From an uncultured archaeon (lineage in GTDB: Archaea > Thermoproteota > EX4484-205 > JAAOZP01), in the NCBI GenBank assembly GCA_938045545.1, contig CALIBN010000001.1, forward strand, positions 1-41,802: a stretch of DNA of 41,802 nt, in the 5' to 3' direction. A program made the translations under genes and the position numbers. Shown here piece after piece: positions 31,233-41,222 of this stretch. The notes beneath the pieces were generated by a model. That model ran no database searches, was not told the DNA's origin, and saw nothing but the letters and a program-made list of their open reading frames with translations. Each line of letters opens with the position of its first letter. The stretch's first letter is position 1.

Positions 31233-31337
31233 TAGAAGCATTTCTGTTAAAACTGCTCATCCGAGTAGGCGCCTCCAGTCAAACGGGTTAGAAAGAGCCT
31301 TAATCCGTGTAGCTGATTGTTTTACAGCTGGAAGAGA

Positions 31338-34232
31338 ATGTTTTTCAACCGTCGCGTGTTTAATGCACTCGTGGAAAGCCCTTCCAGCGAGACGGTTGTT
31401 TCGATGCTTGCGGAACCAGTAGCCAGGCTGGTGGTGGAGAAAGGACTTATCCCACTCACAGAGCCTCAGCTAATGGCCATACCTAGGATACTCGCAGGAG
31501 AGAACGTTTTGATAGTGGCGCCAACCGGAATAGGTAAGACTGAGGCGGCAATACTCCCGGTGCTCAGCCTTATGCTCGAGGACAGGGCCAACGTTAAGAC
31601 GGGTATTTTCCTAATCTACATTACTCCGCTGAGGGCTTTAAACAGGGATCTTGTAGGCAGGATCAGCTGGTGGGCCAGCAGGCTTGACTTCAAGCTCTCC
31701 GTCAGGCATGGCGACACCCCGTCCTCTGAGAGGCGGACGCAATCATTAAGCCCTCCTCATATTCTCGTAACCACTCCGGAAACATTCCAAATACTACTAA
31801 TAGGGTCTAGGCTGAGGAGCCATCTTAAAACCGTCAGATGGGTTGTGGTCGACGAGCTTCATGAGCTAGCCTCAGACAAGAGGGGCAGCCAGCTCTCGCT
31901 AGCCTTGGAGAGGCTTAAAAGAATCGCGGGTGAGAGAATACAGATAATAGGCCTGTCAGCAACGATAGGTGAGCCGGAGCTCCTGGCCCGCTTCATGGTG
32001 GGTTCAGGAGGAGACTTTAAAGTTGTTTCAACACCTGTTCCTCGAGACATGGAGATAGGCATGATTCTCCCAGATGTTGCGGAGGACGACTATGTTACAG
32101 CCGAAAAGCTTTTGACAACGCCTGAAGTATCCGCGAGGCTTCGAGTCATAATGGGGGTTCTCAGGGAGAGGCAGGCTGTTCTCCTCTTCACCAATACTAG
32201 GGCGACTGCTGAAGCGTTGTCTAACAAGCTGCTCGTGATGAACCTTCCGACACCGGTTTCAATCCACCACGGTTCACTGGGTGTTCAGGCCCGGGTTAAG
32301 GCTGAAGAAGGCTTGAAGGAAGGGGAGTTGAGAGGCCTAGTATGCACCTCCAGCCTTGAACTCGGGATAGATGTCGGGCTAGTCGACTTCGTTGTGCAAT
32401 ACGGCTCTCCGAGACAGGCCTCTAGGCTGGTTCAGAGGATAGGGAGGAGTGGCCATAGGATCGGCTTGACGCCCAGGGGGCTGATTATATGCATGGATGA
32501 GGATGATGCTGTTGAATCCATGGTTATAAGGAGAAGAGCATTAAACAATGTTTACGAGCCTGTTTCACCCCCTGAAGAACCATTCGACGTACTGGCGCAT
32601 CAGATCGTCGGAATGCTTCTTGAGAAACCCAGGCTAACCATAGAGGAGATCCTGAAACTGGTTCGAGGAAGCACCCCATACGCTAGGCTTTCAAGAGAAT
32701 CCTTGAAACGGGTTCTGGAATTCCTTTCGTCACAATACCCGAGGTTACTGGCCTTAGACGAGTATAGCGACGCGGTTAGAGCGGGGAGGAAAAGCGGGCT
32801 GATAAGGTTCTTCTTCGAACATGTTTCAAGCATTCCTGAGATCAAACAGTACCCTGTTGTGAATGAAGAGGACAACATGATTATAGGGAACCTGGATGAG
32901 GAGTTCGTGGCGGAGAAGGGGCTTCCAGGCACCAAGTTCGTAATGGGCGGCCTAGTTTGGTCAATAATCCAGGTTTACGAGGGCAGGGTTATTGTGAAGA
33001 GGGCTGAGGACCCGCTTGGAGCAGTACCCTTCTGGACCGGCGAAGAAATACCCGTGGTCTATGAAACAGCCATGGAGGTGGGTGCTTTAAGAAGGATGGT
33101 TGAGGAGAAGTATTCCGAGGGCCTGGGTTTGAAGGAGATTGCCGGAGCCATTTCGCAAAGCTATGGGGTTGACGAGGATCTCGCGTTTAAAACCGTTAAG
33201 CCGATCGTGGAGTGTCTTAAAAGAAACATCCCTGTTGGAACAGACCGGAGGATAGTTTTCGAAAGATGGAGGGACTACACCGTCATACACGTCTGCCTGG
33301 GAGATCTGGGGAACAGGGCCCTGTCAAGAGTCGTCGGCCACATCGTGCTTTCAGAAATAGGCTTAACCGTCCCGGTGAGCAGAGACCCTTACAGGGTTAT
33401 GGTTGAGCGAGCAATCTCACCCTCAATCATACTTGAGAGGATTAAGAGTCTTAGCGAGAAGGATATTGAGAGAATACTGCTTGAAAACATTGAGACTGTC
33501 GGATTGTTCAAAAGAAGGTTTCTGCACGTCGCCAGGAGGATGGGGATAATAGAGAAGGATGCTGACTTAACCTCCATAAGGCTTGAAACCTTGATAAGGA
33601 GTAGTAGAGGCACCGTGGTTTACGATGAGGCTGTTAAAGAGCTTTTGTCTAAAGATTATGAGACAAGACCTCTTGCACAGCTTTTAAGAGACCTGTCCTC
33701 AGGGAGAGTGGAAGCAGTGGTCTACGAGAACCTTGGCGATCCCTCCCCCTTGGCTCAGCCGATTCTAAGACAGGCCGAGAGGCATCTCGATATTTATACG
33801 CCTGAGAACGTTGAGAAGATAGTTTTAATGTATGCTTCAGCGAGGCTGAGAAACACTTCTTTAGAGCTTGTCTGCAGCGAATGCGGCCTTACGCATGGCA
33901 CCGTTAAACCCTTGGAATACGTCCCGGGAGCGAGGTGCAGCAGGTGCGGCGGCAGGCTTGGAGTGAACCCTACCCCCGGCTTAAGGATTAGGCGTGGAAA
34001 ATCCAAGAGGATGAAGGCTGTTTTCAAGAGGATCGCTAAGACGGCGGAGCTGCTTGAAAAGTATGGTAGTGATGCTGCCCTAGCCTTTGCTGGAAGAGGA
34101 TTAAGTCTGAAGACTGTCGAAAAAATATTGTTGAGGAGGAACATGACTGGAGAAGACCTTTTGAAGATGATTGTAGATGCGGAGAGAAGAAGGCTTCAGG
34201 CGAATGAGAAAGAGTCGAGCGCCCGGGATTAA
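31338..34232 (+). CDS. Lhr-type superfamily 2 helicase
   Basis: A large archaeal DEAD/H helicase, about 964 residues. Motifs: Q-motif region LTEPQLMAIPRILAGENVLI, Walker A APTGIGKTEAAILPVL, Ib TTPETFQILLIG, II VVDELHELASDKRGSQ, III LSATIGEPELL, and VI RLVQRIGRSGHRIG. A winged-helix and Lhr-specific core follow. Near the C-terminus a CSEC...CSRC pair (residues about 850-885) forms a zinc ribbon, and a Lys/Arg-rich segment (RIRRGKSKRMKAVFKR) follows it. Lhr proteins unwind DNA forks and RNA:DNA hybrids in repair. TTG 31317 could add seven residues; ATG 31338 is preferred. Confidence 0.88.
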   Translation: MFFNRRVFNALVESPSSETVVSMLAEPVARLVVEKGLIPLTEPQLMAIPRILAGENVLIVAPTGIGKTEAAILPVLSLMLEDRANVKTGIFLIYITPLRALNRDLVGRISWWASRLDFKLSVRHGDTPSSERRTQSLSPPHILVTTPETFQILLIGSRLRSHLKTVRWVVVDELHELASDKRGSQLSLALERLKRIAGERIQIIGLSATIGEPELLARFMVGSGGDFKVVSTPVPRDMEIGMILPDVAEDDYVTAEKLLTTPEVSARLRVIMGVLRERQAVLLFTNTRATAEALSNKLLVMNLPTPVSIHHGSLGVQARVKAEEGLKEGELRGLVCTSSLELGIDVGLVDFVVQYGSPRQASRLVQRIGRSGHRIGLTPRGLIICMDEDDAVESMVIRRRALNNVYEPVSPPEEPFDVLAHQIVGMLLEKPRLTIEEILKLVRGSTPYARLSRESLKRVLEFLSSQYPRLLALDEYSDAVRAGRKSGLIRFFFEHVSSIPEIKQYPVVNEEDNMIIGNLDEEFVAEKGLPGTKFVMGGLVWSIIQVYEGRVIVKRAEDPLGAVPFWTGEEIPVVYETAMEVGALRRMVEEKYSEGLGLKEIAGAISQSYGVDEDLAFKTVKPIVECLKRNIPVGTDRRIVFERWRDYTVIHVCLGDLGNRALSRVVGHIVLSEIGLTVPVSRDPYRVMVERAISPSIILERIKSLSEKDIERILLENIETVGLFKRRFLHVARRMGIIEKDADLTSIRLETLIRSSRGTVVYDEAVKELLSKDYETRPLAQLLRDLSSGRVEAVVYENLGDPSPLAQPILRQAERHLDIYTPENVEKIVLMYASARLRNTSLELVCSECGLTHGTVKPLEYVPGARCSRCGGRLGVNPTPGLRIRRGKSKRMKAVFKRIAKTAELLEKYGSDAALAFAGRGLSLKTVEKILLRRNMTGEDLLKMIVDAERRRLQANEKESSARD

Positions 34233-35229: not shown

Positions 35230-35279
35230 ACTTGAACGCCAATATTTTTTATGGATTTCTGGCGATATAAATTTATGTT

Positions 35280-35840
35280 TTAAACCAGACTGCCTCTCCC
35301 TAATCCCAGATTTTCAGAGTAGCTGCACAGAAACTCCAGGTTCATCCTGCAGGCTACCAGAGGATTGTCAGTAGGCTGGGTTTCCAGTATTATCCATCAT
35401 GAAGCCTACGTTCTTCAATGCCTCAGGGACGGAAAGCATGTCCATCCTGCTTTCTCCCAGGTGGATGCCCCTAGGATCCTTCATATGTACTCGGCTTATG
35501 CACCATTAAGAATAATATCTATAACCGGGTTTAGGTTTGCATGCACCGCGTTTACCGGGGTCATAATAGGCCTTCACCACCGGGGACCCGATTTCATCGA
35601 CAATCGAGGAGAATTATGTCCCAGATCTCGCAAACGGCTAGCCAACGTTCTACAGCGCATATAAGGTGCTTAGACTCTCAACCGCGTGCGCACAAGTCAT
35701 CATCCCTTGGACTCATCTCATCCTAGCCTCCTCCAGTTTCACATCTTCGACTGAGATTAACGGGATTAACAGGTTTCCAGCTTCTAGCTCAGATGCAATC
35801 TCTGCAGCCTGCTCAGTCACCTGTCAAGCCCAATCCTTTT
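35280..35840 (-). pseudogene. Decayed sugar-phosphate isomerase/epimerase (xylose-isomerase-like barrel)
   Basis: On the minus strand, family segments appear in changing frames. TEQAAEIASELEAGNLLIPL ends in a stop. VDEIGSPVVKAYYDPG is followed after a one-base shift by NAVHANLNPVIDIILNGA and a stop. Another shift gives VHMKDPRGIHLGESRMDMLS then VPEALKNVGFMMDNTGNPAY and a stop. A final shift gives TDNPLVACRMNLEFLCSYSE ending at TAA 35280-35282. These match the C-terminal half of AP-endonuclease-2/xylose-isomerase-like sugar-phosphate isomerases. At least three frameshifts make it non-functional. The N-terminal part is not recognisable. The rest of the 820-nt gap (35841-36051) holds no gene I can support. 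Confidence 0.8.
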
Positions 35841-36051
35841 TTTCTTCGCTGCTTGCGAAACTGAGGCGCCAATAAGTGTGAAGACAAATGGAGATAATAG
35901 CTACTCTAGAGGCTTGGGAGAGGCTCTCAACTCGCGCCTTCCTTCTTCATTTCAAAGCTCGGTTTAAAGCATTCATGCTTAAAAAGTCTGAATGATTTTA
36001 AAGCATTCTTTCGCCAACTGCTTGCAACAGGCTTTTGACAAACACACGGTG

Positions 36052-36603
36052 TCAAGCGCTTAAAATGTAATGTACAAATTTCTCAACGTCAAGCTCAGCA
36101 AAAGTCCTCCAGCCTAACACAAGGTTGCTCCCGTCCTCAGCAATATAGCCTCTTTTAACATACCTGGATAAGTTCAACCTTACCCGCCACTCGGGAAACT
36201 TTTTCCTAAGAATCTCCTCAACCTCCTTAACTGGAGCCGAGCCTTTTCTAGAGATTATTGTAGATATCACTACAGCCAGGCCGGCTATCTCGTCTATAGA
36301 CCAGCCCATGGTTTTTGCAGCAGTCAGGCTGAGCTCATCCCTAAGCGTCACGTAGAATCTTGCCGTTGAAAGCCTGCCCTCATCCTCGCTCATGCTAAGC
36401 TCCCTACCGTCGTCTGAAACAATCTTTATCGTGAGGCCCAGGTCCTGGAGGCGCGTGTTTAGAAACTTTATTATTGAAAGGTAGCCTGGCCCAAGGTTCT
36501 TCTTCAGCTCCCAGCCCTTGACGCCTGGAATCCTATGGCTTTTGAATAACAATAGTTGGACGGCACGCGCAACCCTGCTCCTAATCCTCTCCTCCTGCTC
36601 CAA
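36052..36603 (-). CDS. Tandem winged-helix protein resembling Nse3/MAGE (KITE family candidate)
   Basis: A 183-residue protein. The layout follows the MAGE homology domain of Nse3: an N-terminal helix with VARAVQLLLFKSHRIPGVKG, a region predicting helix-strand (IIKFLNTRLQDLGLTIKIVS), a central hydrophobic helix (EIAGLAVVISTIISRKGSAP), a second winged helix (VEEILRKKFPEWRVRLNLSR), and a C-terminal LVLGWRTFAELDVEKFVHYI. The last recalls the WGPRA-x-AE ending of MAGE domains. KITE proteins (ScpB, MukE, Nse1, Nse3) bind the kleisin of SMC complexes, and a kleisin-like gene lies 13 nt upstream. Homology was judged by eye and is not proven. Confidence 0.6.
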   Translation of the reverse strand: MEQEERIRSRVARAVQLLLFKSHRIPGVKGWELKKNLGPGYLSIIKFLNTRLQDLGLTIKIVSDDGRELSMSEDEGRLSTARFYVTLRDELSLTAAKTMGWSIDEIAGLAVVISTIISRKGSAPVKEVEEILRKKFPEWRVRLNLSRYVKRGYIAEDGSNLVLGWRTFAELDVEKFVHYILSA

Positions 36604-36616
36604 CCTTTAACACTCC

Positions 36617-37330
36617 CTAGATCGGCAGGGCCACAGAATGCTTGCCAATGTTCTTAGGGCTCGACCTGAATATCCAGACCCTGTTCTTCAAGGGATCTTG
36701 AACAACCCCCACTAGCCCCCTCATCATGAGAAAACTCAACACTAGCGCTCTAAACACCTTCCTGTCCTCACCCTCCTTACCGACGAAATCATAATAGTCG
36801 ATCATTCCGCGTCCAATCTCGCTGAGAAGCTTCTCCATCTCCCTCTCTAAGTCAGCCTCCTCCATCGGAAGTATTTCAGCAAGCGTGTTAAGCGTCCCCG
36901 CCTCAGGAGCCTCTCCGCCTCCAGGCAGGCTGTATTCCCTGAGGTTAGCCCAGTAGCCGTAGGCTAAACGCATGCACCCCAGGGTGGCCTGCTCGTTCTC
37001 AGCAACAGGCCTGAAAGCCTTTAGGAACGATTCTGCAAGCCTCTCCCTGTCCAGGCCCATTAGCCTAACCTCCATTAGAAACGGGTCCAAGTATAGCCTG
37101 CTAGCCCTCTTCTTAACATCCTCCTGCTGGAGAGCAATAACGTAGATTATTTTAAGCAGCGCAGCCATGTTCATAACCAGCGTCTTCTCATCCATCTCAG
37201 ACAAGCCTTCTCTGAGCCTCCTAAGACTCTCCTTAACGTCCACGACGAAAGGATCAATATTCTTCTCAATAACCTCGTCGCACAGACGGGTAATCCTCTC
37301 GACCAGCTCAGCGTATCTGCTTGACGACAT
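36617..37330 (-). CDS. Kleisin-like (ScpA/Nse4-type) protein
   Basis: A 237-residue protein. The N-terminal part VIEKNIDPFVVDVKESLRRL, then MDEKTLVMNMAALLKIIYVI and RLYLDPFLMEV, matches the ScpA pattern (a DPW/F-x-VDV segment followed by a helix that packs on SMC). The C-terminal RKVFRALVLSFLMMRGLVGV plus VQDPLKNRVWIF looks like the kleisin winged helix that binds the SMC head. The middle (residues about 100-170) is acidic and less regular. It heads a two-gene operon with the KITE-like gene, the same order as bacterial scpA-scpB. An Nse4-like assignment is possible but unproven. Confidence 0.6.
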   Translation of the reverse strand: MSSSRYAELVERITRLCDEVIEKNIDPFVVDVKESLRRLREGLSEMDEKTLVMNMAALLKIIYVIALQQEDVKKRASRLYLDPFLMEVRLMGLDRERLAESFLKAFRPVAENEQATLGCMRLAYGYWANLREYSLPGGGEAPEAGTLNTLAEILPMEEADLEREMEKLLSEIGRGMIDYYDFVGKEGEDRKVFRALVLSFLMMRGLVGVVQDPLKNRVWIFRSSPKNIGKHSVALPI

Positions 37331-37697
37331 TCATTTCAACCTGCTTTCCAGAGCACTGAGACAACCAAAAGAAGGGATATAAGTGTTAATTCTTAGACTA
37401 CTTACCATTCCAAATCAATATCTAGACCCATGTGACAAGCCTGTTTAATCTCTCTGTGGCGAACATATATCACGCTTTAAAATTTTTTCCTAAGATTTTA
37501 CTTTTAACCATCTTTTCATGCTTTTGTCTAAAATCGCTATTATTCAAGGCGATGTAGAATTAGACGATAAACGAACTAGACACTTTTATGGCTAAGAAAC
37601 GAGTTTTCCCCATAATTCGCCATTATAAGATTACAGCGAGTAAACTTTTGCCTTGACAAATTCTTTAATTAACAAAACATCATCCAAAGGATTGAAA
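37331..37697. other. A/T-rich divergent intergenic region
   Basis: About 370 nt between the divergent kleisin-like and V4R genes, markedly A/T-rich around 37480-37640. It contains the promoters of both but I see no ORF, RNA gene or clear repeat. The TATA box of the V4R gene is at its right end. Confidence 0.4.
37664..37671 (+). promoter_or_regulatory. TATA box of the V4R gene
   Basis: TTTAATTA, centred about 30 nt upstream of ATG 37698. It supports that start over the in-frame TTG at 37653. Confidence 0.55.
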
Positions 37698-38552
37698 ATG
37701 GAGGATTGTAAAGCCGTAGGGGAGGAGCTTGAGGAGCTCACATACCAGCCTCAGCCGAGTGAATACTTCAACCCTTTAGACCTAGGGAGGATGGTGGTTC
37801 TCGACGCGGGCCAGAAATGGTATGGTGTTGTTCTGGAGACCATTATTGAGAAGGGTGTTGTCAGGAGGCTTGCCGAGATCGCTGAGCAGGCAGGAATCAT
37901 AATAAGGTTCATCCAGTTTTCCAACGTTGAGCCGCACGATAGTCTTGCTAAGGCGATCGCTTTCCTAGACTTCTCGAGCACGAGCGTCACTCCGGAGGAG
38001 GCTTTGAGGCTCGTCAGGAAACAGCCTTTCGTAAGAAGCGCCCACCTCATAGTTCCGAGTTACGAAGGATTACTCTTCGACAATTATTTCTTCCCGCTCG
38101 TCGTTGGAAAGAGGAGGGCTGTAATCTTCAGGAGGAGGGTCTACGAATCCCTTTTCAAAGGAGTTAGGGAGAAGTTTGGAACAGCGGGGGAGGCAATGCT
38201 ATACTACCAGGGCTTTTGCGTGGGGCACAGGACGTGCCAAGCGTACAGGGAGGAAACAGGCATAGAGGATCCTGAGACACTAGTCGGGCTCGGCAAGGCC
38301 TACTTTAGAATAGTGGGCTTCGGGATAATTGATGTCGCGAGGATAAGCGTTGAAAAAGGAGAAGCACAGGTACGCGTATATGAAAGCTTCGAGTGTGAAA
38401 CCGGCAAGGGTAGCGAAACACCCTACGGCCACTTTATAAGGGGGATTCTAGCAGGATTCTTCACAAACATATTTCAGAAGGAGGCGAAAGCCGTCGAAAC
38501 AAAATGCATAGCGAAAGGAGACCCATACTGCGAGTACATAATAAAAACATAG
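37698..38552 (+). CDS. V4R-domain protein with N-terminal regulatory domain
   Basis: About 284 residues. The N-terminal 110 residues look like an ACT-type ligand-binding fold (AEIAEQAGIIIRFIQFSNVE). The C-terminal V4R domain shows GEAMLYYQGFCVGHRTCQAY, GFGIIDVARISVEKGEAQVR, YESFECETGKGSETPYGHFI, RGILAGFFTNIFQKEAKAVE and TKCIAKGDPYCEYII, the V4R cysteine signature. V4R domains bind small hydrophobic ligands and are structurally related to Bet3/TRAPP. There is no DNA-binding domain, so it probably senses a ligand and acts through another protein. It lies between the kleisin/KITE pair and the SMC-like gene. Confidence 0.82.
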   Translation: MEDCKAVGEELEELTYQPQPSEYFNPLDLGRMVVLDAGQKWYGVVLETIIEKGVVRRLAEIAEQAGIIIRFIQFSNVEPHDSLAKAIAFLDFSSTSVTPEEALRLVRKQPFVRSAHLIVPSYEGLLFDNYFFPLVVGKRRAVIFRRRVYESLFKGVREKFGTAGEAMLYYQGFCVGHRTCQAYREETGIEDPETLVGLGKAYFRIVGFGIIDVARISVEKGEAQVRVYESFECETGKGSETPYGHFIRGILAGFFTNIFQKEAKAVETKCIAKGDPYCEYIIKT

Positions 38553-38670
38553 TTGAAAACCTATTTTTCAGAAACCTGTTTCCAAACCATGATTAACCTT
38601 GGCTTCCAGCCAGTATGGAGCTTAGCATCGCGAGGACAATAACGAGCGTCAAAATATGCTTAAAGGAGTC

Positions 38671-39081
38671 TCACGGCTTCCGCTTCCTGTAAACCACGCC
38701 AAATCCCTTAACGCCCTGGAAAGACGTTCCCAGCGAGATGCTCGTCGGCGTTATGCCCATGTTTAGAATAACCGCCACCACCACGCCATGGTTCTCCTCC
38801 TGTGGTCCAGGGTTTCGCCGAGTTTCGGCAGCTCATCCTCGAAACTGCTTATTGGAAGATAATATATGCCCCAGAGTTTACCATCATACTTCTCGTATTG
38901 CGACTGAATCGCGGGAGGAGTCTTCCCACCTATGACTTTCTCGTAGAGTTTGTCAATGGCCTCTTTCCTACTCAGACCCTCCTCCATCAACCTCGCATCT
39001 CCTGTCCACCATATTCTTGTTTCCATATGCGCGAGTATACAGCTTGTAAAGCTTGGAAAGCTTGGCCTCAGCCACCCCCAT
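38671..39081 (-). pseudogene. Frameshifted hypothetical gene
   Basis: Three frames together give one continuous protein-like sequence on the minus strand. ATG 39081 starts MGVAEAKLSKLYKLYTRAYG, which passes after a shift near 39020 into ARLMEEGLSRKEAIDKLYEK and GKLWGIYYLPISSFEDELPK. After a second shift near 38780 it continues VVVAVILNMGITPTSISLGT to RKRKP and a TGA at 38671-38673. Beyond that stop the same frame reads a hydrophobic segment (HILTLVIVLAMLSSILAG) to 38593. I recognise no family. Two frameshifts plus a possible nonsense codon indicate a dead gene, unless the shifts are assembly errors. Confidence 0.5.
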
Positions 39082-39446
39082 ACTTACGTTTCCAGTAAAA
39101 AACTTCTAAATCTCAAATGGTGAAAAAGTTATTTCACCAGCAACGTTGGAAAAACGTTTAACGTGAAGAACCGCGTTTTAACCTAGTATGAAAACTCTCC
39201 TATCTCCAGCCACAGCAGCACGTCAAACATGAGGAATCCAAGCTTTTAACCGGCGGAGGCTATGCAAAACCCTTAGCGCATGGTAAAGAAAACTAAGTTC
39301 TGAATATACTAAAGAAAAAATAGGTTATTGCTTTATGAAGTTTGAGCATCTTTTTCTATAATAGCAACGGTATTAAAAAACATGGTTTTGACTAGTAAGG
39401 GCGATGCAAAAATCTTATTTAAGCCCTTGAAACCTCTAGAACACCG
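39082..39446. other. A/T-rich gap upstream of the SMC-like gene
   Basis: About 365 nt with no supported gene on either strand. It becomes strongly A/T-rich from about 39290 and ends in the SMC-like gene's promoter. The 38553-38670 stretch on the far side of the pseudogene also holds nothing beyond the hydrophobic read-through described there. Confidence 0.4.
39414..39423 (+). promoter_or_regulatory. TATA box of the SMC-like gene
   Basis: CTTATTTAAG, centred 28 nt upstream of GTG 39447, fixes that GTG as a leaderless start. Confidence 0.65.
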
Positions 39447-41222
39447 GTGGAAACTACAGCGCAGGAAAAAAGTCTTCGATTGAAAGAAGTGATTTTAGAG
39501 CAATTCATGAGTTACCGTTACGCTAGGATACCCATCTACCCTAAGCTTAACCTTATTCTCGGGCCAAACGGGTCCGGGAAGTCGTCAATCCTCCTCGGCG
39601 TGTCCGTGGGCCTCGGCCAGTCTCGGAGCGGCAGGGCTGAGAAGCTTAGCGACCTAATAAGGAACGGGGAGGATATTGCTAGGGTTACTCTGGTATTCGA
39701 CAATTCTCCCGGGCAAGATGGTAAAAGGCCTGTCCCATTCATAAGGTCCGACGAGCTTATTATAACCAGGTATCTGAGGAGGGACGGCGAGTACTGGAGC
39801 CAGATCAATTATAATCCCGCTACGAAAATGGAGATCGACGAGATTCTCTCCCTATTCGGCATAGACCCTTCCAACATGCTGATAATAATGCACCAATACA
39901 TGATTGAAGAGTTCGCCATGCTCGACCCTTCTGAGAAGCTCAGGCTCGTCGAGGGTGCTGTCGGCCTGTCCGGGCTGAGGGATAACATTAAGGCTTCTCA
40001 GGAGAGGCTCAGCAGGATTGTCAGCGAGGAGAAGTCTGTCGAGGCTCTTTTAAACGAGGCTCGTGAAACGCTTGGAATGTGGAGGGCCGAGTACGAGAAG
40101 CTTGTTAAAAAGAGGGAGCTTCAAACTCTCCACGCTGAGTTGAACAGGCTTCTAAAATGGAGCATATACAATCAGCTTAACGCTGAGAAGACCAGGCTTG
40201 AGGAGAACGTTTCTAAGCTTGAGGCAAGGATGGCTGAGGGCAACCGGATAGTCTCCGGGACTGTGGAGAAATACGAGAAGGTCTGGAGCAGGCTGAACAA
40301 GGCGAGGATGAAGCTTAAGAGGGTTTTCTTCAAAGCCTCTGAAAAAGGGTTTGACGACAGCCTCATCGACGAATACAGCAAGCTGGACGAGGAGATAACC
40401 AAGCTGATTAGGAGCTACGTGAAGCTCAACGTTAAGGCCGAGGTCTTGAAATATAGGATCAGGGAGCTCGAAAGGGAGCGCCGCAGAATCCGAGAAAGGA
40501 TTAAGACCGTTGAAGAAAGGGTTAGGGAAGCCAAGGAGCAACTTGAAGGAGAAGCGCCAAAGGAGGTTGAACCCCCTGACGTCTTGGAGAAGAGGATTAA
40601 CGACTGCATTATTCAAATAGCGTCGCTCGGCACAGTCAGCGAGAACGCTGAGGAACTCTACAAAAACTATCTCAACGTTTACAGCGACCTTGAGCAGAAG
40701 GTTAAGATTATAGTTGAAAACAGGAGGGCTGCTGAAAACGAGCTTAAAGACAGGATAGAAATATGGAGAAAGAAGATCGTTGAAACAATAAGCAGGATTA
40801 ACGAGGGCTTCAGGAGAAACATGGAGGTGATGGGCGGCATAGGCGAGTTAAGACTGGCAAACCTAGAGGACATTGAAAACGCGGGCCTAATGATCTTCGT
40901 GAGCTTCGGCGGCAGTACCCTGACAGAGTTTAACGCATACACGCAGAGCGGCGGGGAGAGAAGTGCTACAGTCGTGTCATTCCTAATGGCCCTCCAATCA
41001 CTAGTCAAGTCGAGCATCCGGGGGCTCGATGAACTTGATGTGCATATGGATTCTATTAATAGAATTAAATTTTTCAAAATATTATCAGAAGCTGCGGAGA
41101 AAAATCCTGGAGTAGCATATCTATGCATCACTCCTGGAACTCCACCGCCAGTTAAGGATGCTCATGTAATAGTTGTTCAGAAAGTCCAAGACGAATCAAG
41201 AATATTGGAAGTCAAACAGTAA
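39447..41222 (+). CDS. Short SMC-family ATPase, SMC5/6-like signature
   Basis: A 591-residue ABC-type chromosome-organising ATPase. Residues 17-60: ILEQFMSYRYARIPIYPKLN then Walker A LILGPNGSGKSS (residues 39-47). A Q-loop-like IIMHQYMIEEFAML follows near residue 150. Residues about 170-480 are charged coiled coil (LETFSSK-type heptads on both arms) with no obvious hinge domain or CxxC zinc hook. The C-terminal head has QSGGERSATVVSFLMALQSL (residues 500-519) and Walker B IRGLDELDVHMDSINR (Asp528, Glu529). The MALQSL and LDELDVHMDxINR wording resembles SMC5/SMC6 strongly. Half the usual SMC length. Coalescin (ClsN) and arcadin-4, short crenarchaeal SMC-like proteins, are the main alternatives. 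Confidence 0.85.
   Translation: METTAQEKSLRLKEVILEQFMSYRYARIPIYPKLNLILGPNGSGKSSILLGVSVGLGQSRSGRAEKLSDLIRNGEDIARVTLVFDNSPGQDGKRPVPFIRSDELIITRYLRRDGEYWSQINYNPATKMEIDEILSLFGIDPSNMLIIMHQYMIEEFAMLDPSEKLRLVEGAVGLSGLRDNIKASQERLSRIVSEEKSVEALLNEARETLGMWRAEYEKLVKKRELQTLHAELNRLLKWSIYNQLNAEKTRLEENVSKLEARMAEGNRIVSGTVEKYEKVWSRLNKARMKLKRVFFKASEKGFDDSLIDEYSKLDEEITKLIRSYVKLNVKAEVLKYRIRELERERRRIRERIKTVEERVREAKEQLEGEAPKEVEPPDVLEKRINDCIIQIASLGTVSENAEELYKNYLNVYSDLEQKVKIIVENRRAAENELKDRIEIWRKKIVETISRINEGFRRNMEVMGGIGELRLANLEDIENAGLMIFVSFGGSTLTEFNAYTQSGGERSATVVSFLMALQSLVKSSIRGLDELDVHMDSINRIKFFKILSEAAEKNPGVAYLCITPGTPPPVKDAHVIVVQKVQDESRILEVKQ

What the first reader, a model, noticed from the sequence alone, without database searches (positions are those of the whole stretch)
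36052..41222. A complete parts list for a minimal SMC5/6-like complex: SMC ATPase, kleisin and KITE protein
Within 5.2 kb the window encodes a short SMC-family ATPase (39447-41222), a kleisin-like protein (36617-37330) and a tandem winged-helix protein resembling Nse3/MAGE (36052-36603). SMC complexes of the SMC5/6, Smc-ScpAB and MukBEF types all consist of exactly these three classes. The ATPase carries an SMC5/6-flavoured C-terminal signature, and the KITE candidate resembles Nse3 rather than ScpB. If real, it would be an archaeal relative of SMC5/6 in a reduced form, useful for the origin of the eukaryotic complex. Seen: motifs and gene order. Known: family composition of SMC complexes. Inferred: that the three work together.
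Basis: partly seen in the sequence, partly recalled or inferred. Interest (0 to 1): 0.88.

Follow-up and report, generated by a model that had tools for sequence, protein, structure and literature searches.

The report
Hinge-free archaeal SMC5/6-like DNA clamp
This archaeon carries the genes for a stripped-down relative of SMC5/6, the complex that guards chromosomes in eukaryotic cells: a short SMC ATPase with Nse4-like and Nse3-like partners, predicted to lack the usual hinge and likely to work as an ATP-driven DNA clamp, which would help to show where the eukaryotic machine came from.

Summary
The window, from an archaeon of the same genus as named Brockarchaeota MAGs, encodes a 591-aa SMC-type ATPase (39447-41222 +), a 237-aa kleisin (36617-37330 -) and a 183-aa KITE protein (36052-36603 -). 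Homologues recur together: kleisin and KITE co-occur in 154 of 159 Thermoproteota genomes that have either, with the SMC in 151 of the 154, usually as one SMC-kleisin-KITE operon, which this genus has partly broken up. All three proteins point independently to SMC5/6. The SMC family profile ranks SMC5 and SMC6 above every other solved SMC; a canonical archaeal SMC profile does the reverse. Kleisin relatives match Nse4_C, KITE relatives match MAGE/Nse3, and the KITE model's nine best PDB matches come from SMC5/6, Nse or MAGE entries. The surprise is the arm: about 290 residues between the two head halves, no hinge match, and a model showing a plain helical hairpin. Best reading: a homodimeric, hinge-free, ATP-gated DNA clamp, probably in DNA repair (function inferred). 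The archaeal SMC5/6-related ATPase is in print; a 2024 preprint that I could not read may already describe its partners.

The parts
39447..41222 (+). SMC5/6-type ATPase, 591 aa, predicted hinge-free
   Evidence: Pfam SMC_N 8.9e-30; best PDB sequence match SMC5 E 3.4e-26; family profile A3 has SMC5/SMC6 as its top 10 PDB sequences; AlphaFold2 pLDDT 86.6
39561..39584 (+). Walker A GPNGSGKS (residues 39-46)
   Evidence: sequence; G39, P40, N41, G42, G44, K45, S46 invariant in 18 homologues
39969..40829 (+). coiled-coil arm, residues 175-461: helix 175-300, turn, helices 304-364, 377-393, 401-461; no hinge domain
   Evidence: AlphaFold2 model; SMC_hinge PF06470 found in this genome only in the canonical SMC
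40347..40355 (+). tip turn of the arm, residues 301-303, where a hinge would sit
   Evidence: AlphaFold2 secondary structure (block mean pLDDT 77-79 there)
40941..40961 (+). ABC signature TQSGGER (residues 499-505)
   Evidence: same letters in the SMC5 chain aligned
41028..41051 (+). Walker B/D-loop DELDVHMD (residues 528-535)
   Evidence: the SMC6 chain has DEFDVFMD; 8 of 13 canonical SMCs of this phylum have DEVDAHLD
36617..37330 (-). Nse4-type kleisin, 237 aa
   Evidence: Nse4_C PF08743 in 19 of 24 homologues, best 1.6e-7; profile A2 hits EID3 E 2.7e-5 and Nse4 1.7e-3. The window copy itself has no direct Pfam hit
36650..36805 (-). predicted C-terminal winged-helix domain of the kleisin (about residues 176-227), the Nse4_C-like part
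   Evidence: profile A2 match to EID3/Nse4 C-termini; Y179, A195, S199, F200, G205 invariant in 43 sequences
36052..36603 (-). KITE protein, Nse3/MAGE-type, 183 aa, predicted tandem winged helix
   Evidence: AlphaFold2 pLDDT 88.6; Foldseek best 7dg2_C (Nse1-Nse3-Nse4 complex) E 3.7e-5; MAGE PF01454 in 6 of 24 homologues, best 2e-5. The window copy itself has no Pfam hit
31317..34232 (+). Lhr-type DEAD/DEAH helicase; syntenic neighbour, not a subunit
   Evidence: Pfam DEAD, Helicase_C, WH_Lhr, DEAD_assoc; its family is the next gene after KITE in 17 of 36 surveyed loci

Best explanation
The window encodes the SMC ATPase, the Nse4-type kleisin and the Nse3/MAGE-type KITE of an archaeal relative of SMC5/6, and the three are predicted to form a hinge-free, likely homodimeric complex that would clamp DNA against its ATP-engaged heads. 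Shown: the three gene families, their co-occurrence and operon, the SMC5/6-ward sequence affinity of each family, intact ATPase motifs, and no match to the SMC_hinge family. Predicted: the KITE fold and the arm as a plain helical hairpin whose first strand is 126 residues (about 19 nm at 0.15 nm per residue). Inferred: two copies of the one SMC engage on ATP; the kleisin binds one head by its C-terminal winged helix and the other neck by its N-terminal helices; the KITE (one copy or a dimer) closes the top of the DNA clamp, as Nse3 does in SMC5/6 of yeast. Without a hinge the long arm compartment cannot be closed, so the machine would be an ATP-gated clamp, more likely serving DNA repair or recombination than long-range loop extrusion. 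Hinge loss is probably secondary, because canonical archaeal SMC and eukaryotic SMC5/6 both have one.
Against: No interaction was tested. The window's own kleisin and KITE have no Pfam hit at E up to 1 and no meaningful PDB sequence hit, and are not among the genomes found with Nse4_C or MAGE; identity rests on homologues, profiles and the KITE model. Most Nse4_C hits lie below Pfam's cut-off (29 of 39), as do 2 of 3 MAGE hits. With a second, less diverse kleisin profile (A6) Nse4 comes only at E 0.042, behind calmodulin chance hits from 0.017. KITE profiles A1 and A4 find no Nse3 among PDB sequences. In one search designed pentatricopeptide chains score like EID3 (3.6e-5), a repeat artefact. 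The KITE's best Foldseek match has only TM 0.58 and rmsd 5.6 over the whole length; the tight matches (rmsd about 2) cover only the second winged helix, a common fold. Structure alone does not prefer SMC5/6 for the SMC: the model is closest to Pyrococcus Smc constructs. In this genus the SMC has been separated from kleisin-KITE. Eukaryotic SMC5/6 is a heterodimer with two KITEs; only one SMC and one KITE of this type were found in the genome.
Confidence: 0.7

Rival explanations
1. The complex is real and SMC5/6-like, but the arms do dimerise at the tip (through the short turn, the coils, or an unknown partner), so that it forms a closed ring and extrudes loops like other SMC complexes.
For: Several homologues carry roughly 40-90 more residues near the tip (alignment; lengths 579-682 aa). 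A conserved gene of about 230 aa and unknown fold (C4) lies near the operon in 18 of 43 surveyed loci and is present in 7 of 7 genomes tested, G000 included.
Against: No hinge family match in the window's SMC; CxxC (zinc-hook motif, recalled) in 0 of 120 homologues; three-residue turn in the model.
Confidence: 0.25
2. It is an anti-phage defence machine of the Wadjet or Lamassu kind (SMC-like ATPase with kleisin/KITE partners), not a housekeeping chromosome complex.
Against: Kleisin and KITE match no PADLOC model. The gene families that recur in at least 4 of 43 surveyed loci are, besides the trio, only an Lhr-type helicase, C4 and one other; neighbours were not scanned against PADLOC. The kleisin occurs in 79 of 163 sampled genera, broader than one expects of a patchy defence island.
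Confidence: 0.08
3. It is a variant canonical Smc-ScpAB complex whose likeness to SMC5/6 is superficial.
For: The SMC model is closest to Pyrococcus Smc constructs; ScpA chains appear weakly with profile A2 (0.019 to 0.25).
Against: Mirror-image profile ranking; Nse4_C and MAGE rather than ScpA and ScpB families; window SMC far below the canonical SMC cut-off (189.5 bits against 729.4); the genome has a separate canonical SMC with hinge, although that one too is below the cut-off (472.3 bits).
Confidence: 0.05

Closest known systems
Eukaryotic SMC5/6 core: Smc5, Smc6, Nse4, Nse1, Nse3
   Same: SMC head and joint sequence, Nse4-type kleisin C-terminus, MAGE/Nse3-type KITE; the SMC combines TQSGGER as in SMC5 with DE.DV.MD as in SMC6
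   Different: One SMC and one KITE of this type found instead of two each; SMC of 591 residues against 1,093 for SMC5; no hinge found; Nse2, Nse5 and Nse6 were not looked for
[quoted passage not shown]
   Same: Archaeal SMC grouping with SMC5 and SMC6; probably the same class of ATPase
   Different: I could not obtain their sequences to test identity; the passages I read say nothing on kleisin, KITE or absence of a hinge in it
Archaea-specific SMC-related proteins (coalescin, Sph)
   Same: Archaeal SMC-like ATPases; the NCBIfam model is 593 positions long
   Different: NCBIfam ASRP model gives 35.3 bits against a cut-off of 300
Bacterial Smc-ScpAB and archaeal Smc-ScpA
   Same: SMC, kleisin and KITE classes
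   Different: Families ScpA and ScpB not matched; archaeal Smc-ScpA is reported to work without a KITE (PMC7055376, abstract and passages)
SMCL-1 of C. elegans
   Same: SMC-type head without a hinge
   Different: SMCL-1 also lacks coils and hydrolysis residues and regulates condensin (PMC5373644, passages); here ATPase motifs are intact and kleisin and KITE are present

Membership tests
SMC5/6 complex | SMC ATPase closer to SMC5/SMC6 than to SMC1-4 or Smc | tested here: met
   Reciprocal profile ranking; no tree with eukaryotic SMC1-6 was built, and structure comparison does not discriminate
SMC5/6 complex | Nse4-type kleisin | tested here: met
   Nse4_C in 19 of 24 homologues; 39 of 39 genome-scan hits in this gene, 0 of 14 controls. 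The window copy itself has no direct hit
SMC5/6 complex | Nse3/MAGE-type KITE | tested here: met
   Foldseek and VIA rankings; MAGE in 6 of 24 homologues. The window copy itself has no direct hit
SMC5/6 complex | second KITE with RING (Nse1) | tested here: inconclusive
   Only one KITE match in the genome; a divergent Nse1 could escape the model; no RING search was run
SMC5/6 complex | SMC5-SMC6 heterodimer | tested here: not met
   One SMC of this type in the genome at E <= 1e-30; assembly 92% complete
SMC5/6 complex | hinge domain joining two SMCs | tested here: not met
   PF06470 hits only the canonical SMC of this genome; model shows a hairpin
SMC5/6 complex | Nse2 SUMO ligase | not tested
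   no search run
SMC5/6 complex | physical assembly and DNA clamping | not testable with these tools
   needs biochemistry; no complex model was run
Smc-ScpAB | ScpA-family kleisin and ScpB-family KITE | tested here: not met
   Neither family among the matches of 24 kleisins or 24 KITEs at E <= 1; no ScpA in the genome, where the control rings in 9 of 14 genomes
ASRP (coalescin/Sph) | NCBIfam NF045487 cut-off | tested here: not met
   35.3 bits, cut-off 300
Arcadin-4 | NCBIfam NF053563 cut-off | tested here: not met
   28.8 bits, cut-off 860
Canonical prokaryotic SMC | TIGR02169 cut-off | tested here: not met
   189.5 bits, cut-off 729.4; the genome's own canonical SMC, interrupted by an intein, also stays below it with 472.3 bits, so the cut-off alone is a weak test
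Wadjet/Lamassu defence | defence partner proteins beside the ATPase | tested here: inconclusive
   ATPase matches mad3, LmuB and JetC generically; kleisin and KITE match nothing; neighbours in 43 loci were clustered, not scanned against PADLOC

The most novel reading that the evidence does not exclude
Many Thermoproteota run a complete SMC5/6 clamp module, an SMC homodimer plus Nse4 and Nse3 prototypes, that has thrown away the hinge: a natural SMC machine reduced to its DNA-clamping head half. It would show that the kleisin-KITE clamp of SMC5/6 is older than eukaryotes, that Smc5 and Smc6 arose by duplication from one homodimeric subunit carrying features of both, and that an SMC complex can do useful work without ring closure at a hinge and so without canonical loop extrusion.
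Probability: 0.45. Interest if true: 0.9.

Novelty: new variant of a known kind. Interest (0 to 1): 0.74.

Why it matters
If true, the Nse3-Nse4 part of SMC5/6 has living archaeal counterparts encoded next to an SMC5/6-type ATPase, which makes the origin of the complex testable by reconstitution of three small proteins. A hinge-free SMC complex would also separate, in nature, the DNA-clamp function of SMC machines from the hinge-dependent ring and loop-extrusion functions.

Tried and rejected
Single-sequence searches of the KITE and kleisin against Pfam, NCBIfam and PDB found nothing usable; only homologue sets, profiles and the KITE model worked. KITE profiles A1 and A4 against PDB sequences gave no Nse3. 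The kleisin profile A6 (43 sequences from a narrower range) gave calmodulin chance hits ahead of Nse4; A2, more diverse, gave EID3 and Nse4 with designed-PPR artefacts beside them. Foldseek and VIA on the SMC model do not discriminate SMC5/6 from canonical SMC. The defence reading (Wadjet, Lamassu, MADS) was considered and set aside; the Smc-ScpAB reading likewise. Four C4 members gave no Pfam match near a cut-off, and the C4 profile A8 gave one PDB match, at E 0.6. A complex model was not attempted, since the tool folds single proteins; the two AlphaFold jobs went to KITE and SMC, so the kleisin fold is untested. Absence of other families from the VIA lists is not used as evidence. Literature: archaeal Nse partners and hinge-less SMCs were searched. 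Nothing in the listings or in the passages that I opened describes an archaeal Nse3 or Nse4, but most listed papers I saw only as listings, and the library holds no bioRxiv preprints. The preprint van Hooff et al. 2024 (10.1101/2024.01.07.573240), seen only as a title in reference lists, may already do so; Yoshinaga and Inagaki 2021 (10.1093/gbe/evab256) was not held either. I did not rerun the literature search for the hinge loss under other wordings than those.
Full report
What is there. G000, the genome of the window (2.03 Mb, 51 contigs), shares its genus with G003, whose contig C1 has the same length (52,711 bases) as JAFNIQ010000006.1, a named Candidatus Brockarchaeota MAG; the six named loci found with the SMC are 79-97% identical to it, four of them labelled Brockarchaeota. 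The kleisin and KITE genes are 13 bases apart on the minus strand. The SMC gene is divergent from them, with a V4R-domain gene (37653-38552) between.

Are they real genes that belong together? In 61 related genomes KITE and kleisin are each found in 34. In 398 Thermoproteota genomes the kleisin profile hits 157 (one of them only at 5.3e-4), the KITE profile 156 and the SMC profile, at E <= 1e-30, 163 (the weakest few, around 1e-32 to 1e-34, are probably canonical SMCs). Comparing the sets, kleisin and KITE are both present in 154 of the 159 genomes with either, and the SMC in 151 of those 154. Coordinates were listed for 150 matches of each search: kleisin-to-KITE adjacent and co-oriented in 142 of 146; SMC directly upstream and co-oriented in 129 of 141; all three in a row in 126 of 139. 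Of the 12 exceptions for the SMC, 7 have kleisin and SMC on different contigs (G045, G156, G162, G168, G358, G363 and G005; some may be assembly breaks, but both G005 contigs are long) and 5 are rearrangements on one contig (G000, G003, G004, G085, G193). In the congeners G002 and G007 the common order is intact. The genes form a conserved operon that this sublineage has split while keeping all three parts.

The SMC. Alone it scores best against SMC5 in the PDB (3.4e-26). Profile A3 (18 homologues) has SMC5 and SMC6 chains as its first ten sequences of 86, 2.6e-60 to 1.2e-50, before a Pyrococcus Smc (5xei) at 4.5e-47. A profile of ten canonical SMCs from the same phylum (A7) does the reverse: Smc and SMC1-4 first, SMC5 at 1.7e-30, SMC6 at 4.1e-19. 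In bits, SMC5 chain 7ylm_A gets 208 from A3 and 99 from A7, while Smc 5xei gets 164 and 556. The active-site motifs mix SMC5 and SMC6 traits: TQSGGER as in SMC5, DE.DV.MD as in SMC6; 8 of 13 canonical SMCs of the phylum read DEVDAHLD there. It passes no NCBIfam cut-off for canonical SMC, ASRP, arcadin-4 or Rad50; the genome's own canonical SMC, split by an intein, also misses the canonical cut-off, so the profile ranking is the better test. Species of the PDB chains and the status of EID3 as an NSE4 paralogue are recalled, not given by the calls.

The kleisin. Pfam Nse4_C matches 19 of 24 homologues (best 1.6e-7) and ScpA none. Profile A2 finds EID3 at 2.7e-5 and Nse4 at 1.7e-3, with weaker ScpA hits and an artefact of designed repeats; profile A6 is much weaker, Nse4 at 0.042 behind calmodulins. 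As a blind test, a six-frame scan of 250 genomes with Nse4_C gave 39 genomes at E <= 0.001, 10 of them over Pfam's cut-off, and none of 14 control genomes. All 39 places fall inside the kleisin gene as located (checked). The window's own kleisin is not among the 39; it is related to them through the A2 family.

Surroundings. In 43 surveyed loci (40 picked for spread and fetched, the window, and two) the recurrent neighbours are an Lhr-type helicase family (22 loci), a family of about 230 aa and unknown fold, C4 (18 loci), and one other (4 loci). By this ORF-based survey the helicase is the first gene after KITE in 17 of 36 loci with enough flank, within three genes in 20. In the window it is 31317-34232, two genes or ORFs further on. 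C4 is in 7 of 7 genomes tested; in G000 it sits on C23, the contig of the canonical SMC. One locus (L174) has a topoisomerase IB between C4 and the SMC. The helicase synteny is the only hint of a repair role here; it is circumstantial.

How it would work. In yeast SMC5/6 the engaged heads hold DNA from below, Nse3 secures it from above and Nse4 is the scaffold (PMC9191643, abstract and passages). Heads, kleisin and one KITE of that clamp have counterparts here; the hinge-distal part is missing. The simplest reading is an ATP-gated clamp made by an SMC homodimer, a kleisin and a KITE. This is inference. The alternative that the arm tips meet in some other way is open.

What is known. PMC9389158 (parts 1 and 2 of 4 read) cites an 'SMC5/6-related' archaeal SMC clade, joined with SMC5 and SMC6 at 100% bootstrap and 0.99 posterior. 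[quoted passage not shown] PMC7055376 (abstract and passages) argues that archaeal Smc-ScpA works without a KITE. So the class of the ATPase is known; the operon with Nse4-like and Nse3-like partners and the missing hinge did not turn up in the searches listed under Tried and rejected. A 2024 preprint on the prokaryotic roots of SMC complexes could not be read and may cover the partners. I therefore call it a new variant of a known kind.

Limits. No interaction data, no complex model, no kleisin model, no eukaryote-wide tree, no Asgard survey; identity of the window's own kleisin and KITE comes through their families. On checking, the confidence of the best explanation was lowered from 0.72 to 0.70, because most single-family hits lie below Pfam's cut-offs.

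Noticed in passing
G000:C23:26000-33500 (L187:1728-5645 -): The genome's canonical SMC (1306-aa frame, with hinge) carries an intein-splicing domain (Pfam 1.5e-12) that begins right after the Walker A lysine; the partial canonical SMC on L006 shows the same kind of insertion at that site.
   Followed up: partly
G000 whole genome: No ScpA-family kleisin found for the canonical SMC, although the same search rings in 9 of 14 control genomes; it may lack or have a diverged kleisin, or the assembly (92% complete) may miss it.
   Followed up: no
L005:9159-9911 and 17 other loci; G000:C23:43478-44170: C4, a conserved family of about 230 aa with no Pfam or PDB match, recurrently beside the SMC5/6-like operon and often divergent from the SMC; candidate accessory factor.
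   Followed up: partly
window 31317-34232: Lhr-type helicase family kept next to the KITE gene in 17 of 36 surveyed loci, convergent in the cases read, so probably not co-transcribed.
   Followed up: partly
L174:2394-3935: Eukaryotic-type topoisomerase IB (Topoisom_I 2.8e-67) directly upstream of the operon, on the opposite strand, in one genome.
   Followed up: no
window 35230-36051 and 38553-39446: Two stretches of about 0.8-0.9 kb without convincing genes on either side of the kleisin-KITE and V4R genes; possible scars of the rearrangement that split the operon.
   Followed up: no
G015:C6:604486-604857 and G059:C1:248167-248502: Weak second matches to the KITE (E 4.4e-5 and 3.2e-4) inside frames of about 650 residues; possibly another tandem winged-helix protein.
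   Followed up: no
window 37653-38552: V4R-domain protein (Pfam 1.8e-15) between the divergent SMC and kleisin; no recurrent link to the operon seen.
   Followed up: no
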